The position numbers and the translations under genes were made by a program. Below the pieces are notes generated by a model, which was given only the letters and a program-made list of their open reading frames with translations, had not been told where the DNA came from and ran no database searches. Positions 32,701 through 38,659 of a stretch of 64,000 nt of DNA are shown one piece after another. The first letter of the stretch is position 1; the number at the start of each line of letters is the position of its first letter. Source of the DNA: an uncultured Bacteroidota bacterium (GTDB lineage: Bacteria; Bacteroidota; Bacteroidia; Flavobacteriales; Flavobacteriaceae); contig CACNIG010000005.1 of the NCBI GenBank assembly GCA_902620455.1, forward strand, positions 1 through 64,000. The letters run 5' to 3'.

Positions 32701-32786
32701 GCTCGAGTGGTGGAATTGGTAGACACGTTGGACTTAAAATCCAATGAACAGTAATGTTCGTGCGGGTTCAAGTCCCGCCTCGAGTA
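32701..32786 (+). tRNA. tRNA-Leu (anticodon TAA)
   Basis: The acceptor GCTCGAG pairs with CTCGAGT (terminal G-T wobble) with discriminator A. The anticodon stem TTGGA/TCCAA carries loop CTTAAAA, giving TAA. A long variable-arm hairpin (GAACA-GTAA-TGTTC) and T arm GCGGG-TTCAAGT-CCCGC are present. Five bases after tRNA-Gly, so co-transcribed. The 3' part of this gene is the sequence repeated at 38541, the probable right end of a genomic island. Confidence 0.96.
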
Positions 32787-32841
32787 CTTAGAAAATCGTA
32801 ATAGGCTATTTAAAAGTTTGTTACGGTTTTTTTTATTACCC
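32765..32841 (+). repeat. Direct repeat A (attL-like): tRNA-Leu 3' end plus terminator
   Basis: From the T arm of tRNA-Leu(UAA) through its terminator to TTATTACCC, this segment recurs in the same orientation at 38541-38615. By eye roughly four-fifths of positions agree: the first 26 bases differ at five, followed by ATCGTAA, AGTTTGTT and the T run with TTATTACCC in both. The repeat begins within the tRNA, not before it, as for tRNA-targeted integration. Confidence 0.75.
32794..32834 (+). terminator. Terminator after tRNA-Gly/tRNA-Leu
   Basis: Arms AATCGTAA and TTACGGTT (one wobble) around a 19-base loop, followed by a run of T. It ends the tRNA transcript and isolates it from the island genes. 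Confidence 0.7.
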
Positions 32842-32893
32842 ATTTGGTAACATATTGAAAACAAAACAGAGAATATTTTGTTAAATTGTAGGA

Positions 32894-33166
32894 ATGGGAG
32901 ACAGCGAAAAAAAAGAATTGAGAAATAAAGGGGAAGAGTTTCTTAAGAAATTAAGAGCTGCACCCTATAACAATGATAAAGTAGGTCAATCTTTTATTAA
33001 AAAAACATCAAGCAAACCAAAGACAGTAAAAGATACATCTAACTTGAAGCCAGGTGGTAAGTTCTACGAACTATTTAAAGATGTTCCTTTTAATAATGCT
33101 TTAGCTGGAAAATCTTTTATTAGAAAAGTTTCAAAAAAAAATGAACAAGACAAACAAACAGATTAA
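32894..33166 (+). CDS. Small protein with duplicated 25-residue motif, first gene of the island
   Basis: Not recognised. A 90-residue, Lys-rich protein with no signal or membrane segment. It contains two copies of one motif, residues 13-37 and 54-78, exactly 41 residues apart: G-x-x-F, then Pro-Tyr/Phe-Asn-Asn, a Gly three residues after a short spacer, and Ser-Phe-Ile-Lys/Arg-Lys. The linker is Lys/Ser/Thr-rich. A good ribosome-binding site (TAGGA) precedes the ATG. Its last 26 bases overlap the first methyltransferase gene, so it is translationally coupled to the module. It might be a DNA-binding accessory or regulator, but it has no visible helix-turn-helix; that is speculation. Confidence 0.75.
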   Translation: MGDSEKKELRNKGEEFLKKLRAAPYNNDKVGQSFIKKTSSKPKTVKDTSNLKPGGKFYELFKDVPFNNALAGKSFIRKVSKKNEQDKQTD

Positions 33167-33791
33167 ATCTAAAGAAAGAGTTTCTCAGCATGGGGAAGTT
33201 TATACTTCAGAAAGAGAAGTAAACAACATGTTAGACCTTGTAAAAAATGAAACTGAAAGATTGGATTCTAGATTTTTAGAACCAGCTTGTGGAGATGGCA
33301 ACTTTTTGATAAACATTCTAGAAAGAAAAATGAATATCCTTGTATCTAGGTACAAAAAACAACAGCACGAATTTGAAAAGTATTCGATTGTTGTAATATC
33401 ATCAATATATGGAATTGATATTTTGAAAGACAACATTGAGGAGACCAAAAAAAGACTATATGATTATTATTTTAAAGTCTATTCTAAGACTTTTAAAAAT
33501 TCTCAAAACAATGAACTTTTAAAAAACATACAATATATACTGGATAAGAACATGATTCTTGGTGATGCACTTTCTTTAAAAAAAGTTGATTTAGATGAGC
33601 CTGTAACTTTTTCTGAATGGAGTTTAGTAAATAATTCAATTAAAAGAAGAGATTTTACTTTTGAAAACCTTCTTCAAAACTCACCATTGGAGGGAGAGAA
33701 TCTTTTTTCTGATTTAGGAGACGATGTATTTATCCCTACACCTGTAAAAGAATATCCATTAGTTCACTATTCAAAAATATCTGAGTTATGA
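33141..33791 (+). CDS. N6-adenine DNA methyltransferase-like protein, SAM-binding half
   Basis: A 216-residue protein with the start of an adenine-methyltransferase fold. KERVSQHGEVYTSEREVNNM leads into motif I, FLEPACGDGNFL (residues 45-56), which binds S-adenosylmethionine. It continues with IYGIDILKDNIEETKKRL (acidic motif II) and MILGDAL (motif III). There is no NPPY catalytic motif IV anywhere in the chain, and the protein is far shorter than a complete enzyme. The start overlaps the small repeat protein by 26 bases and the end overlaps the next methyltransferase gene by four. It is probably one component of a two-part methyltransferase; that pairing is inference. Confidence 0.82.
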   Translation: MNKTNKQIKSKERVSQHGEVYTSEREVNNMLDLVKNETERLDSRFLEPACGDGNFLINILERKMNILVSRYKKQQHEFEKYSIVVISSIYGIDILKDNIEETKKRLYDYYFKVYSKTFKNSQNNELLKNIQYILDKNMILGDALSLKKVDLDEPVTFSEWSLVNNSIKRRDFTFENLLQNSPLEGENLFSDLGDDVFIPTPVKEYPLVHYSKISEL

Positions 33792-35278
33792 TAAAAAAAG
33801 TTCATAATCCCGATGTTTTAACATGTATTGCTAATTTAAGTAGTGATGAGGTGTTTACACCTCCATCTGTTGTAAATCAAATGTTAGATTCACTACCTAA
33901 GGAATTATGGAGTAATGAAAAAACTACTTTTCTTGACCCTGTTTCTAAATCAGGGGTTTTCCTTCGAGAAATCACCAAAAGATTGATTGATGGATTGGAA
34001 AGTAAGATTCCAAACCTTGAAAACAGAATAGAACATATTCTTCACTATCAAGTATTTGGAATAGGAATCACAGAACTTACTTCGCTTATCTCAAGAAGAA
34101 GCTTGTACTGTTCAAAATATGCTAATGGAAAATATTCTATTGTTCAATTTGATGATGAACAAGGAAACCTAAAGTATTTTAAGGCTGAACATGTCTGGGA
34201 AGGTGGGGTTTGTAGATACTGTGGAGTAAGTAAAGAAATTTATGACAGAGGGGATGAATTAGAGAATTACGCTTATTCATTCATTCATTCTGATAACCCT
34301 TTAAAATTATTTAATATGAAATTTGATGTAATCGTTGGTAATCCACCTTATCAAATGAGTGATGGAGGAGGAGGAGGAAGTGCTACTCCTCTATACCATA
34401 AGTTTATTGACACAGCTAAAAAATTAAATCCCAGGTTTTTAACTATGATTATCCCTTCAAGATGGTTTTCAGGAGGTAGAGGTTTAGATTCTTTTCGAGA
34501 AGAAATGTTAAAGGATAGAAGAATTTCTAAACTAGTAGATTTCCCACTTTCATCGGATTGTTTTCCGGGGGTTGAAATCAAAGGTGGGGTATGTTACTTT
34601 CTATGGGAAAAGGATTACAACGATAAATGTAATGTAGTAACCTTTAGAAATGGGGAATCTGACTCATATCTAAGATATTTAAATCAATTTGGAGATAACC
34701 TATTCATAAGGTTTAACAACTCCATTTCAATACTAGAAAAAGTTTTAAAGTTAAAAGAACCATCTTTTTCAAAGGTTGTAAGTAATCAAAAACCATTTGG
34801 TTTAAGAACATTTGAAAGGGGTTCAACGGTTCCATCCACTGGAAAAATAGAATTATTTACTAACAAAGGAGTTCAGTATGTATCAAAAGAAAAAGTAACT
34901 AAAAACCCTCATTGGATAAATGAGTTTAAAATCTTTATCACAATGGCGTATGGTGCTGGTGAGGATTTTCCTCACCAAATAATTAATAAACCTTTACTTG
35001 GAGGAAAGGATTCGTGTTGTACTGAAACCTATTTAGTTATTGGACCCTTTTCTTCTTTGGAAAGAACAAATAATGTAATTAGTTACATCAAAACGAAGTT
35101 TTTTAGATTTTGTGTTCTACAAATAAAAAACACTCAACATGCATCAAAATCAGTATATCGGTTTGTCCCTGAACAAAATTTTGATGAAGAATGGACAGAT
35201 GAAAAATTGTACAAAAAGTATGATTTAAATAAAGAAGAGATTGAATTTATAGAGAGTATGATAAGACCAATGGAATAA
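33788..35278 (+). CDS. Eco57I-like N6-adenine DNA methyltransferase with NPPY motif
   Basis: A 496-residue methyltransferase-like protein. The motif I position reads FLDPVSKSGVFL (residues 48-59), with Lys where a Gly is usual. It is followed by VFGIGITELTSLISRRSLYCSK (motif II region), a CRYCG cysteine pair (residues 142-146) and the catalytic motif IV, VIVGNPPYQMSDGGGGG (NPPY at about 185). The segment FLTMIIPSRWFSGGRGLD and a C-terminal target-recognition-like domain complete it. The fold matches the Eco57I-type family of adenine methylases found in restriction-modification systems. It overlaps the preceding half-methyltransferase by four bases and ends five bases before the helicase gene. 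Confidence 0.85.
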   Translation: MIKKVHNPDVLTCIANLSSDEVFTPPSVVNQMLDSLPKELWSNEKTTFLDPVSKSGVFLREITKRLIDGLESKIPNLENRIEHILHYQVFGIGITELTSLISRRSLYCSKYANGKYSIVQFDDEQGNLKYFKAEHVWEGGVCRYCGVSKEIYDRGDELENYAYSFIHSDNPLKLFNMKFDVIVGNPPYQMSDGGGGGSATPLYHKFIDTAKKLNPRFLTMIIPSRWFSGGRGLDSFREEMLKDRRISKLVDFPLSSDCFPGVEIKGGVCYFLWEKDYNDKCNVVTFRNGESDSYLRYLNQFGDNLFIRFNNSISILEKVLKLKEPSFSKVVSNQKPFGLRTFERGSTVPSTGKIELFTNKGVQYVSKEKVTKNPHWINEFKIFITMAYGAGEDFPHQIINKPLLGGKDSCCTETYLVIGPFSSLERTNNVISYIKTKFFRFCVLQIKNTQHASKSVYRFVPEQNFDEEWTDEKLYKKYDLNKEEIEFIESMIRPME

Positions 35279-35283
35279 AAATT

Positions 35284-37776
35284 ATGAGTAAAGAATTCTT
35301 CCCACCAAAACCAGAAGTAAATCCAACTATATATGGATATACTGAACTTTCAGCTGAATATGACGGTTTGATAAAGGTTGGATATACTGAGAGAACTACT
35401 TCTGAAAGAATGAAGGAACACTATCCAACAAAAGGACCTGATAGTTTAAAAAAATATAAAGTCCTTTTAGATGAATCCGCAATGAGAAACGATGGTACTC
35501 ACTTTAAAGACTATGATGTTCACAAAGTACTAAAAGAAAGAGGGTTTGAGAATGTTGGTGGTGAATGGTTTAGGGTCAGTGTTGATGAATTAAAATCTAT
35601 AATATTATCCCTTAAGGAAGGAATAGCTCTTGAGCTTTCCAGAACAAATAATTTCAAACCACGCCCTGAACAGGAAGAGGCAATCGACAGGACTTATAAT
35701 TACTTCAAACACTTCAAATCACAGGAAGGTAAACCACCTCATTTTTTATGGAATTGTAAAATGAGATTTGGAAAAACTTTCACCACATATAAACTTGCTC
35801 AAAAAATGGATTGGAGCAAGGTTTTAATATTAACTTTTAAGCCTGCAGTAGAAAATTCTTGGAGAGAGGATTTGAATACTCACGTTGATTTTGAGGGGTG
35901 GCAATTCATATCAAGAGGTGGAAAAAGTTATGATGAGATTGATAAATCAAAACCGTTCGTATGCTTTGCATCTTTTCAAGACTTTCTAGGCAAAAATCAG
36001 TTGGGGGGAATTAAATTAAAAAACCAGTGGGCTCATAAAGTTGATTGGGATTGTATTGTTTTAGATGAATATCATTACGGTTCATGGAGAGATACAGCTA
36101 AGGAATTATATGAAGCTGAGGATTTAAAAGATTTGAAAGAAGAGAGGTTGGATGAAATGGAGAATTGGGATGAGGATATTGTTCCACTTAAAACAAATGG
36201 TTTCTTGTACTTAAGTGGTACTCCATTTAGAGCAATAGAATCGGGTGAGTTTATAGAAGAGCAAATTTTTAATTGGACTTATTCAGATGAACAAGAAGCC
36301 AAAGAAAAATGGCAAGATGATGATAATCCATATGCATCTTTACCTAGGATGGTTATGATGACATACCAACTTCCTGACTCCATAACACAGTTCACAGATA
36401 GAGGTGAATTTGATGAATTTGATTTGAATATCTTTTTCTCTGCAGAGGGCGAGTATGAAGAATCAAAGTTCAAATATGAAAATGAAGTACAAAAATGGTT
36501 AAACTTAATTAGAGGAGCAGACTTTAATAGGCTTTATGATAGCTTAAAAATAGGTGCTAATAAAGCTTTTCTTCCGTTCTCACATACTGCATTGCTAAAT
36601 AACTTAAACCATACATTCTGGTTTTTACCATCTGTTTCTTCATGTTATGCTATGAAAAACTTGTTAGAACAACCTCAAAATGTGTTCTTTCATGAATTTG
36701 ATATTCTTGTAATTGCAGGAAAAAAAGTTGGTGTAGGGGTCAAATCACTAGAACCTGTAAGAAAAAGCATGCAGAATCCGCTAAAGACAAAATCAATTAC
36801 TTTGTCTTGTGGAAAGTTAACAACTGGAGTTACAGTAAAACCATGGAGTGGTTTATTCATGTTGAGAAATACTAGCTCTCCTGAAACTTATTTTCAAACT
36901 GCTTTTAGGGTGCAATCTCCATGGACAATTTCGAGTTCTGATAAAGACTCTCCCGATAAAAAAGAAATTGTAAAAGGAGAGTGTTATGTGTTCGACTTTG
37001 CACCTAATAGAGCTTTAAAATTAATTACAGACTATAGTTGTAGACTAGATGTTCGTGAAAATAATCCTGAACAAAAAGTACACGAGTTTATAAAATTCCT
37101 ACCAGTTTTATGCTTTGATGGCAGCTCAATGAAAGTTTTAAACTCTCAGGATGTTCTTGATATAGGAATGGTTGGAACCTCAGGAACTCAACTTGCTAAA
37201 AAATTCGAGAGTGCACGTCTAGTTCATGTAGATGACATGACTCTAAAAAGGCTTATGCAAAATCAAAAGGCAATGGATATTCTCATGAAAATTGAGGGAT
37301 TTAGAAGTTTAAATACAGATTTAGAAAAAATAATTAATAAATCAGAAAAAATTAAAAAATTAAAAAAGGAACCTTCAGATGATGATAATAAGAAAAAAAA
37401 GAGAGAAATATCTCAAGAAGAGAGAGAGCAAAGAAGCTTAAGAAAACAAATACAAGAGAAGCTTCAAAAATTTATTACCAGAATACCAGTATTTATGTAT
37501 CTAACTGATTATCGTGAAAGAACATTAGATGATGTTATTACTCAGCTTGAACCAGCTTTATTTAAAAAGGTAACAAGTCTATCAGTTAGTGATTTTGAAT
37601 TACTTCGAGAAATAGGATTATTTAATAGTAGTGAGCTCAATAGTTCTGTATTTTCATTTAAAAGATATGAGGACTCTTCTCTGTCCTACACAGGTGTATG
37701 GAAACATAAAAATGAGGACATTGGTCTTTTTAATACTGTAATTAGTAGTGAAGAGTTTAAAGGAGAAACTGATTAA
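35284..37776 (+). CDS. SF2 helicase with N-terminal GIY-YIG-like region (restriction subunit candidate)
   Basis: An 830-residue protein with two parts. Residues 16-115 resemble the GIY-YIG/T5orf172 nuclease fold: IYGYTEL, then LIKVGYTERTTSERMKEH with the Arg, and GGEWFRVS with a candidate catalytic Glu. The rest is a superfamily 2 helicase/translocase: RPEQEEAI, Walker A KMRFGKTFTT (Lys164), ILTFKPAVENSW, Walker B variant VLDEYHYG (residues 259-266), LSGTPFRAI, and motifs V/VI LTTGVTVKPWSGLFML and QTAFRVQSPW. The C-terminal third is Lys/Glu-rich with a coiled segment (about 680-725). No PD-(D/E)XK nuclease was found, so the GIY-YIG-like region is the probable cutter. Position after two methyltransferases supports a restriction role; activity is inference. 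Confidence 0.82.
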   Translation: MSKEFFPPKPEVNPTIYGYTELSAEYDGLIKVGYTERTTSERMKEHYPTKGPDSLKKYKVLLDESAMRNDGTHFKDYDVHKVLKERGFENVGGEWFRVSVDELKSIILSLKEGIALELSRTNNFKPRPEQEEAIDRTYNYFKHFKSQEGKPPHFLWNCKMRFGKTFTTYKLAQKMDWSKVLILTFKPAVENSWREDLNTHVDFEGWQFISRGGKSYDEIDKSKPFVCFASFQDFLGKNQLGGIKLKNQWAHKVDWDCIVLDEYHYGSWRDTAKELYEAEDLKDLKEERLDEMENWDEDIVPLKTNGFLYLSGTPFRAIESGEFIEEQIFNWTYSDEQEAKEKWQDDDNPYASLPRMVMMTYQLPDSITQFTDRGEFDEFDLNIFFSAEGEYEESKFKYENEVQKWLNLIRGADFNRLYDSLKIGANKAFLPFSHTALLNNLNHTFWFLPSVSSCYAMKNLLEQPQNVFFHEFDILVIAGKKVGVGVKSLEPVRKSMQNPLKTKSITLSCGKLTTGVTVKPWSGLFMLRNTSSPETYFQTAFRVQSPWTISSSDKDSPDKKEIVKGECYVFDFAPNRALKLITDYSCRLDVRENNPEQKVHEFIKFLPVLCFDGSSMKVLNSQDVLDIGMVGTSGTQLAKKFESARLVHVDDMTLKRLMQNQKAMDILMKIEGFRSLNTDLEKIINKSEKIKKLKKEPSDDDNKKKKREISQEEREQRSLRKQIQEKLQKFITRIPVFMYLTDYRERTLDDVITQLEPALFKKVTSLSVSDFELLREIGLFNSSELNSSVFSFKRYEDSSLSYTGVWKHKNEDIGLFNTVISSEEFKGETD

Positions 37777-37794
37777 TAGGCTGAAGTTATAGAG

Positions 37795-38151
37795 ATGAAA
37801 GTGGTTCAATATCAAAATTTTGGAAAATCAATAGAATCAATTCCTAATTCAAAAGGCAACATAGATATGCAGATGTTCTTTTCAGTTTATGAGCTTGATA
37901 ATGGAAAAACAATTTGCTTAGAAACAATTAAGTATTTTAATGAAGAAAAAAGTGAGTTTGAATGGGGAGAGTTTTCAGATTGTGTTAAACATAATTGTAT
38001 TTATCTAGAACACTTCAAGTTTGGAGATGAATTTCATGAATGGTTTGATAAAACACCAAAATGGACTCCTGAAACAAAATGGCCAAATAGCGATGAAGAA
38101 GCTTTAGTAATAAATTTTTATGAGAACAAAATCAAAGTCAGTGAAAATTAA
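37795..38151 (+). CDS. Small protein of unknown function in the island
   Basis: Not recognised. A 118-residue soluble, acidic protein rich in Phe, Trp and Glu (for example FEWGEFSDCV, EFHEWFDKTPKW, ETKWPNSDEE), without signal peptide or membrane segment. It starts 18 bases after the helicase gene and its 3' end overlaps the next small gene by 32 bases, so it belongs to the same operon. An immunity, inhibitor or specificity role is possible but nothing in the sequence shows it. Confidence 0.6.
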   Translation: MKVVQYQNFGKSIESIPNSKGNIDMQMFFSVYELDNGKTICLETIKYFNEEKSEFEWGEFSDCVKHNCIYLEHFKFGDEFHEWFDKTPKWTPETKWPNSDEEALVINFYENKIKVSEN

Positions 38152-38455
38152 TGAAAAAGAATTTATAAAGAAGTTTAAGTCCTTTTCTAAACATCAAACA
38201 TGGACAAAAGACAAACATGATAAGAAAGAAGAGCTTTTTTCTTTTATAAGTGAATTTGAAAACATACAATTCCTGATTAATTATCACAATAATCCTTTTG
38301 GATTTTCTCAAAAATCTTGGGAGCTTAAAAAATATAAAGTTCCCCACAATAAATTAGGTCATTTGAAGAAATACAGAGACATGAAAGTTTTGTTATTGAA
38401 CATTGGTAAAAAAAACATGTTTAAATTAGAAATAATAGCCCTTCCTATTGAGTAA
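38120..38455 (+). CDS. Small basic protein of unknown function, last gene of the island
   Basis: Not recognised. A 111-residue, strongly basic protein (many Lys, with a KKFKSFSKHQTWTKDKHDKK stretch near the N-terminus), predicted cytoplasmic. It overlaps the preceding acidic protein gene by 32 bases. The opposite charge of the two neighbours would suit a complex, but that is speculation. It ends 86 bases before the second tRNA-Leu-like repeat. Confidence 0.55.
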   Translation: MRTKSKSVKINEKEFIKKFKSFSKHQTWTKDKHDKKEELFSFISEFENIQFLINYHNNPFGFSQKSWELKKYKVPHNKLGHLKKYRDMKVLLLNIGKKNMFKLEIIALPIE

Positions 38456-38540
38456 CCAGTTTCTTTTAACAAATGTAATTTTTTGAGTTATTGATTTTAA
38501 TTTAATATATACAGTATATGATAAATATATCAATTGTATA

Positions 38541-38615
38541 GATTCGAGTCCCACCTCAAATACTTAAAGAAATCGTAAAAGACTATATTAAGTTTGTTGT
38601 GATTTTTTTATTACC
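38541..38615 (+). repeat. Direct repeat B (attR-like): partial tRNA-Leu 3' end plus terminator
   Basis: Starting GATTCGAGTCCCACCTC, this is a diverged copy of the tRNA-Leu(UAA) T arm, acceptor end and downstream terminator at 32765-32841. The rest of a tRNA is absent upstream, where instead there is an AT-rich stretch with the palindrome ATATAC-A-GTATAT (38507-38519). It cannot encode a functional tRNA. Confidence 0.75.
38571..38610 (+). terminator. Second copy of the tRNA-Leu terminator
   Basis: Arms AATCGTAA and TTGTGATT pair fully if two G-T wobbles are allowed, followed by a T run. Changes in the right arm relative to the first copy keep the pairing, so it may still end transcription of the island operon. 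Confidence 0.6.
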
Positions 38616-38659
38616 CCCTAAATCAATTTTATAACTTGTAACAATGAAAAAACCCTTAT

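What the first reader, a model, noticed from the sequence alone, without database searches (positions are those of the whole stretch)
33141..35278. Methyltransferase motifs appear divided between two overlapping genes
The 216-residue protein has an intact SAM-binding motif I (EPACGDGNFL) but no NPPY catalytic motif. The 496-residue protein has NPPY but a motif I (DPVSKSGVFL) where the usual Gly is Lys. The genes overlap by four bases. Each half alone looks incomplete, and together they make one set of motifs. Inference: an obligate heteromeric methyltransferase.
Basis: partly seen in the sequence, partly recalled or inferred. Interest (0 to 1): 0.6.

Follow-up and report, generated by a model that had tools for sequence, protein, structure and literature searches.

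The report
Split DNA methyltransferase of DrdVI type
Two overlapping genes encode the two halves of one bacterial DNA-methylating enzyme, with a third gene for a DNA-cutting motor: a new member of a known but little-studied family (DrdVI), in which one half carries a conserved, apparently dead copy of the cofactor-binding module.

Summary
M1 (33141-33791) has an intact SAM motif I and no NPPY. A third gene (35284-37776) encodes a GIY-YIG nuclease plus SF2 translocase. The same three genes lie on Deinococcus plasmid pDrdVI, whose co-cloned M1+M2 methylate GCAGCC; M1-M2.MaeIV is a second characterised case. So the heteromeric enzyme belongs to a known 'split methylase' family.

The partition is fixed across phyla: M1 keeps GxG and the acid in 178/178; M2 has Lys in 155/155 and never the acid. 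M2's N-terminal lobe is a degenerate paralogue of M1. Natural variants suggest the wiring. Phages carry M1 fused straight to the NPPY lobe, or M1 plus a NPPY-lobe-only gene, without the dead lobe or the nuclease gene. Other loci carry the dead lobe on the nuclease chain. Best model: M1 supplies SAM, M2's C-lobe catalyses, and the dead lobe couples to the nuclease/translocase. AlphaFold2 also places the dead lobe in the canonical N-lobe site of M2 alone, so exact assembly is open. 'Obligate' is untested.

The parts
33141..33791 (+). M1 subunit (216 aa): SAM-binding N-lobe half of a gamma-class N6-adenine MTase, no NPPY
33279..33308 (+). M1 motif I, EPACGDGNFL (residues 47-56), GxG intact
   Evidence: GxG in 178/178 relatives
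33417..33419 (+). M1 motif II acid (D93 of YGIDI)
   Evidence: D/E in 178/178
33788..35278 (+). M2 subunit (496 aa): dead N-lobe plus catalytic NPPY lobe with probable target-recognition region; overlaps M1 by ATGA
33788..34315 (+). pN: degenerate N-lobe of M2 (residues 1-176), paralogous to M1
   Evidence: (M1 profile hits it, E 5.3e-7)
33935..33964 (+). Degenerate motif I of M2, DPVSKSGVFL; K54 at 33947-33949
34211..34222 (+). Invariant CxxC (CRYC, residues 142-145), possible metal-binding knuckle in the pN-to-C linker
   Evidence: both Cys 127/127
34316..35278 (+). C-lobe of M2 (M177 onward): NPPY plus TRD-like region; M177 corresponds to the start codon of C-lobe-only genes in phages
34340..34351 (+). 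Motif IV NPPY (residues 185-188)
35284..37776 (+). R subunit (830 aa): GIY-YIG-type (T5orf172/MUG113) nuclease plus ResIII SF2 helicase/translocase
32767..32841 (+). Left copy of ~75-bp direct repeat (80% identical) covering the 3' end of tRNA-Leu: att-like left edge of the island
38543..38616 (+). Right copy of the direct repeat; relatives without the island join about 32842 to about 38543

Best explanation
A DrdVI-type split restriction-modification system. M1 is the SAM-binding N-terminal half, and M2's C-lobe is the catalytic (NPPY) and probably target-recognising half, of one gamma-class N6-adenine DNA methyltransferase. They assemble so that SAM held by M1 faces the NPPY pocket. M2's own N-lobe (pN) is a duplicated N-lobe that has lost SAM motifs I and II but kept a strictly conserved Lys; it most likely couples the methyltransferase to R, the GIY-YIG nuclease/translocase. 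Shown here: the motif partition, its conservation, the paralogy of the two N-lobes, the natural fusions and module shuffles, and the association of pN with R. Published for relatives: the M1+M2 pair methylates m6A. Inferred: that M1 docks on the C-lobe in place of pN, that pN couples R, and that both subunits are required.
For: Same gene order on pDrdVI; M2 49% identical over 99%. M1-2.DrdVI and M1-M2.MaeIV methylate when co-expressed. Motif partition invariant in 178 M1 and 155 M2. Natural single chains L182 and L184 join an M1 N-lobe directly to the C-lobe; L184 folds confidently as a CamA/M.TaqI-like MTase (pLDDT 90.9, pTM 0.88). L208, L186 and Tenacibaculum phage PTm1 have an M1-type gene plus a C-lobe-only gene. 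L141 and L217, where the only N-lobe found is pN-type, keep intact motif I and acid. pN with its KSG/KQG signature lies on the R chain in other loci. Dead lobe and R co-occur: 130 both, 6 neither, 1 and 1 discordant (Fisher p=6e-9, related sequences not independent).
Against: AlphaFold2 of M2 alone puts pN in the canonical N-lobe position (pTM 0.86; top hits CamA), so M1 would have to displace it, and no M1:M2 complex was modelled. Covariation between M1 and the C-lobe is not detectable with 138 pairs. Two loci, L067 and L136, show no M1 beside M2. The systems without pN are few and viral.
Confidence: 0.75

Rival explanations
1. M2 is the whole methyltransferase: its N-lobe binds SAM in a non-canonical way with K54 inside the pocket, and M1 is a regulatory, stabilising or allosteric subunit.
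For: M2 alone is modelled as a complete gamma-class MTase fold. K54 is strictly conserved rather than drifting.
Against: Motif-I Gly and motif-II acid are both gone in every M2, while M1 keeps both in 178/178. Phage systems lacking pN keep M1 and the C-lobe. The Lys persists where pN sits on the R chain away from the C-lobe.
Confidence: 0.15
2. M1 and pN form a pseudo-symmetric N-lobe pair, and the C-lobe switches between them: the M1-bound state methylates, the pN-bound state with R restricts.
For: Both lobes are homologous and both can be modelled on the C-lobe. pN tracks R. M1-pN covariation exceeds M1-C and pN-C.
Against: No direct evidence for switching. The covariation may be shared ancestry of two conserved lobes against a hypervariable TRD. 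(This is a sub-case of the best explanation, not exclusive of it.)
Confidence: 0.25
3. The system is decaying: M2's motif I is a chance lesion and the locus is inactive.
For: A single Gly-to-Lys change could inactivate a lone enzyme; M2 was found in only this one of 25 genus genomes.
Against: The same Lys is in all M2 relatives across phyla, including the plasmid carrying active DrdVI. All three reading frames here are intact.
Confidence: 0.03

Closest known systems
DrdVI (M1.DrdVI, M2.DrdVI, DrdVI R) of Deinococcus wulumuqiensis plasmid pDrdVI
   Same: Same three genes in the same order; M2 49% identical over 99%; same motif partition. M1-2.DrdVI methylates GCAGCC as m6A.
   Different: Specificity of the window's enzyme is unknown; here on a tRNA-Leu-associated chromosomal island, not a plasmid.
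M1-M2.MaeIV of Methanococcus aeolicus
   Same: [quoted passage not shown] pair gives m6A at GCACY.
   Different: Archaeal; its sequence was not compared here.
Bibersteinia trehalosi Btr188ORF1790/ORF1760
   Same: M1.DrdVI-like N-terminus and M2.DrdVI-like C-terminus in one ORF, plus a GIY-YIG gene.
   Different: Frameshifted or fragmented and inactive there.
Gamma-class N6A MTases CamA, M.TaqI, BrxX/PglX
   Same: Nearest solved folds for both the M1-C fusion and M2.
   Different: Single chains with motifs I and IV together and no dead second N-lobe (general knowledge).
Type ISP enzymes (LlaGI)
   Same: Nuclease, translocase, MTase and TRD act as one system; LlaGI is among the fold hits.
   Different: One polypeptide with an Mrr-family nuclease and one MTase core (titles in the PMC3874165 reference list, and general knowledge); here three genes, GIY-YIG nuclease and two N-lobes.

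Membership tests
DrdVI-type split methylase RM | Adjacent M1, M2 and GIY-YIG/translocase genes in one operon | tested here: met
DrdVI-type split methylase RM | Homology of M1 and M2 to the DrdVI subunits | tested here: met
   M2 49% over 99%, 50% in alignment; M1 42%
DrdVI-type split methylase RM | SAM motifs in M1 and NPPY in M2 | tested here: met
DrdVI-type split methylase RM | m6A methylation by the M1+M2 pair | not testable with these tools
   shown for DrdVI and MaeIV only
DrdVI-type split methylase RM | Both subunits required for activity | not testable with these tools
   the passages read report pairs cloned together; no single-subunit assay found
Gamma-class N6-adenine MTase | Order motif I then NPPY in a TaqI/CamA-like fold | tested here: met
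   met for natural M1-C fusion L184; M2 alone has the fold but not motif I
Type IIG (the label used by NEB for DrdVI) | Nuclease and MTase in one polypeptide, no translocase | tested here: not met
   R is a separate gene with a ResIII helicase domain; PMC4752239 uses 'Type IIG-like' for atypical gene layouts
Type ISP | Nuclease, translocase, MTase and TRD in a single polypeptide | tested here: not met
   three genes here
Type I | Separate HsdS specificity subunit | tested here: not met
   no additional specificity-subunit gene among the ORFs of the island; no specificity-subunit Pfam hit for the small ORFs

The most novel reading that the evidence does not exclude
The family uses three lobes: a live SAM lobe (M1), a catalytic NPPY lobe, and a SAM-dead lobe with an invariant Lys that is present only when the nuclease/translocase is. 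The dead lobe is a dedicated coupling or switching device that competes with M1 for the catalytic lobe and so decides between methylation and restriction; phages that capture the enzyme for self-protection discard both the dead lobe and the nuclease.
Probability: 0.25. Interest if true: 0.68.

Novelty: new member of a known kind. Interest (0 to 1): 0.42.

Why it matters
The locus itself is a further DrdVI-type system, but the comparison turns an undescribed 'split methylase' label into a testable mechanism: which of two homologous N-lobes feeds SAM to the catalytic lobe, and why a dead lobe with an invariant Lys is kept wherever the nuclease is present. The pN-less phage versions are natural deletion experiments. 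A naturally split adenine methyltransferase could also be a ready-made reconstitution tool for targeted m6A marking.

Tried and rejected
(1) Direct modelling of an M1:M2 complex: the structure tool takes single chains of native sequence. A read-through M1-stop-M2 chain (L093) was considered, but MAFFT kept aligning M1 rows onto the paralogous M2 N-lobe in every set of useful depth, so it was dropped; the natural M1-C fusion L184 and M2 alone were folded instead. (2) Mutual information on 138 M1/M2 pairs: M1-pN signal is strong, M1-C and pN-C near zero; not read as contact because the C-lobe is hypervariable and ancestry confounds it. (3) A single-sequence viral scan with M2 found nothing; the profile scan worked. 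(4) Sequence search of PDB with M2 or its profile: no hit; M1 profile only a type I HsdM. (5) Chance or pseudogene explanation rejected by conservation. (6) Type I, ISP and classical IIG membership rejected on gene layout. (7) A literature search for a described heterodimeric adenine MTase with SAM and catalytic motifs on different chains found none in the held library, which is limited to open-licence papers.

Full report
WHAT IS THERE. The two ORFs are exactly as described: M1 33141-33791 and M2 33788-35278, overlapping by ATGA. Six bases past M2's stop a third ORF, 35284-37776, encodes a T5orf172/MUG113 (GIY-YIG-type) domain and a ResIII SF2 helicase. Pfam gives Eco57I methylase for M2 (E 3.6e-35) and only weak MTase hits for M1. 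PADLOC model PDLC03626, a 1359-residue type IIG protein, matches R over its positions 150-800 and M2 over 863-1359, i.e. R-like and M2-like parts fused in one chain.

KNOWN FAMILY. The best full-length plasmid match is pDrdVI of Deinococcus wulumuqiensis 479 (49% over 99% of M2), with the same three-gene order. The NEB genome paper reports M1-2.DrdVI, GCAGCC, 6mA, cloned and expressed in methylation-deficient E. coli (PMC6430315). [quoted passage not shown] A fused, frameshifted relative is described in Bibersteinia (PMC4996451). The heteromeric enzyme is therefore not new. I found no description of how the split works in the held library.

CONSERVATION OF THE SPLIT. Relatives were taken from plasmids, phages, GTDB genomes and viral contigs. 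In 127 aligned M2s, position 54 is Lys in 127, the motif-II position is A/G/S/P and never D/E, and NPPY is intact in 126. The genome and viral scans for M2 partly used the Lys as a search pattern, so I checked subsets not conditioned on it: 26 of 26 and 11 of 11 have Lys. M1 keeps GxG in 178/178 and the motif-II acid in 178/178, and lacks NPP[YFW] except in two fusions. A profile of M1 hits M2's N-lobe (E about 1e-5 to 1e-10 in relatives, 5e-7 in the window itself), so M2 carries a dead paralogue of M1. I call it pN.

NATURAL REARRANGEMENTS. (a) L182 and L184 (viral contigs; L184 beside a phage RNA polymerase): one ORF joins an M1 N-lobe directly to the C-lobe at M-x-FDVIIGNPPY, with pN absent. 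(b) L186, L208 and Tenacibaculum phage PTm1 (L017): an M1-type gene plus a C-lobe-only gene that begins at or next to the residue equivalent to M2's M177; M177 is Met in 124 of 127 full M2s. (c) L201, L202, L205, L213, L214, L223: M1, C-lobe-only gene, and a pN-type lobe on a separate downstream chain; in L201 that chain is the R subunit (MUG113 plus ResIII, pN at its C-terminus). (d) Bacillota plasmids L015, L016, L018, L019: M1 plus one R-pN-C chain. (e) L141 and L217: a C-lobe gene followed by a single pN-type lobe with intact motif I and acid; these lie at the base of the pN clade (SH-aLRT 90-94, long branches). Even in the most diverged R-linked pN lobes the signature K[SQ]G survives (DLYTKSG, DIASKQG, EINSKSG); one exception is L197. 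Counting loci with room to see R: dead lobe and R 130, neither 6, dead lobe without R 1 (L012, where a Tn3-family transposase gene lies where R should be), R without the Lys signature 1 (L197); Fisher p = 6e-9. The sequences are related and the pN-less cases few, so the p-value is indicative only.

STRUCTURE. AlphaFold2 of the L184 fusion: pLDDT 90.9, pTM 0.88; nearest solved folds are CamA (E 3.9e-17), BrxX/PglX, M.TaqI and LlaGI. Hence an M1-type lobe and the C-lobe make one complete gamma-class MTase. The window's M2 alone: pLDDT 88.8, pTM 0.86, also CamA-like over its length. So pN can be modelled in the same place, and the models do not decide which lobe sits there in the real complex. 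No M1:M2 model could be made.

MECHANISM. Inference from the above: SAM is bound by M1 and presented to the NPPY pocket of M2's C-lobe. pN, unable to bind SAM canonically, serves the link with R. Steps shown: partition, conservation, paralogy, module shuffling, pN-R association. Steps inferred: docking of M1 on the C-lobe, the role of pN and its Lys, and the need for both subunits.

CONTEXT. The system lies on a 5.7-kb island that is absent at this site in three related genomes: G013, G015 and G023 join the DNA at about 32842 to about 38543. A 75-bp, 80% identical direct repeat containing the 3' end of tRNA-Leu(taa) flanks the island. No integrase was recognised among its ORFs. M2 was found in none of the 24 other genus genomes.

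VERDICT. Observation confirmed; a heteromeric methyltransferase is very likely and already known as a family; 'obligate' untested. The added value is the three-lobe anatomy and the dead lobe's tie to the nuclease.

Noticed in passing
window 32767-32841 and 38543-38616: The RM island (about 32842-38542) is flanked by a 75-bp imperfect direct repeat that includes the 3' end of tRNA-Leu(taa), yet shows no recognisable integrase gene; three related genomes show the empty site.
   Followed up: yes
L191, L192, L194, L198, L200, L204, L206, L211, L219 and similar viral loci: Phages carry stand-alone M1-like N-lobes (about 136-180 aa, SAM motif I intact) with no NPPY lobe found: 16 of 18 viral records had no Eco57I-family match, and no shared neighbour gene was seen. 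Function unexplained; anti-restriction decoy is one idea.
   Followed up: partly
L039 4119-4994, L082 4111-4953, L016 761-1681, L017 4926-5933: A second, very diverged M1 subfamily (motif I LEITCGEAPY, YGYEWQGDN) pairs with ordinary M2, with an R-pN-C chain, or with a bare C-lobe gene in phage PTm1.
   Followed up: partly
window 32894-33166: A 90-aa ORF just upstream of and overlapping M1 (by 26 bases), with two similar internal segments (PYNNDKVGQSFIKK / PFNNALAGKSFIRK); no confident family match and absent from 24 genus relatives.
   Followed up: partly
window 37795-38151 and 38120-38455: Two small ORFs of unknown function at the 3' end of the island, without confident family matches.
   Followed up: no
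L093 5001-6512: Avibacterium M2 has NLPY instead of NPPY, the only one of 127; possibly inactive.
   Followed up: no
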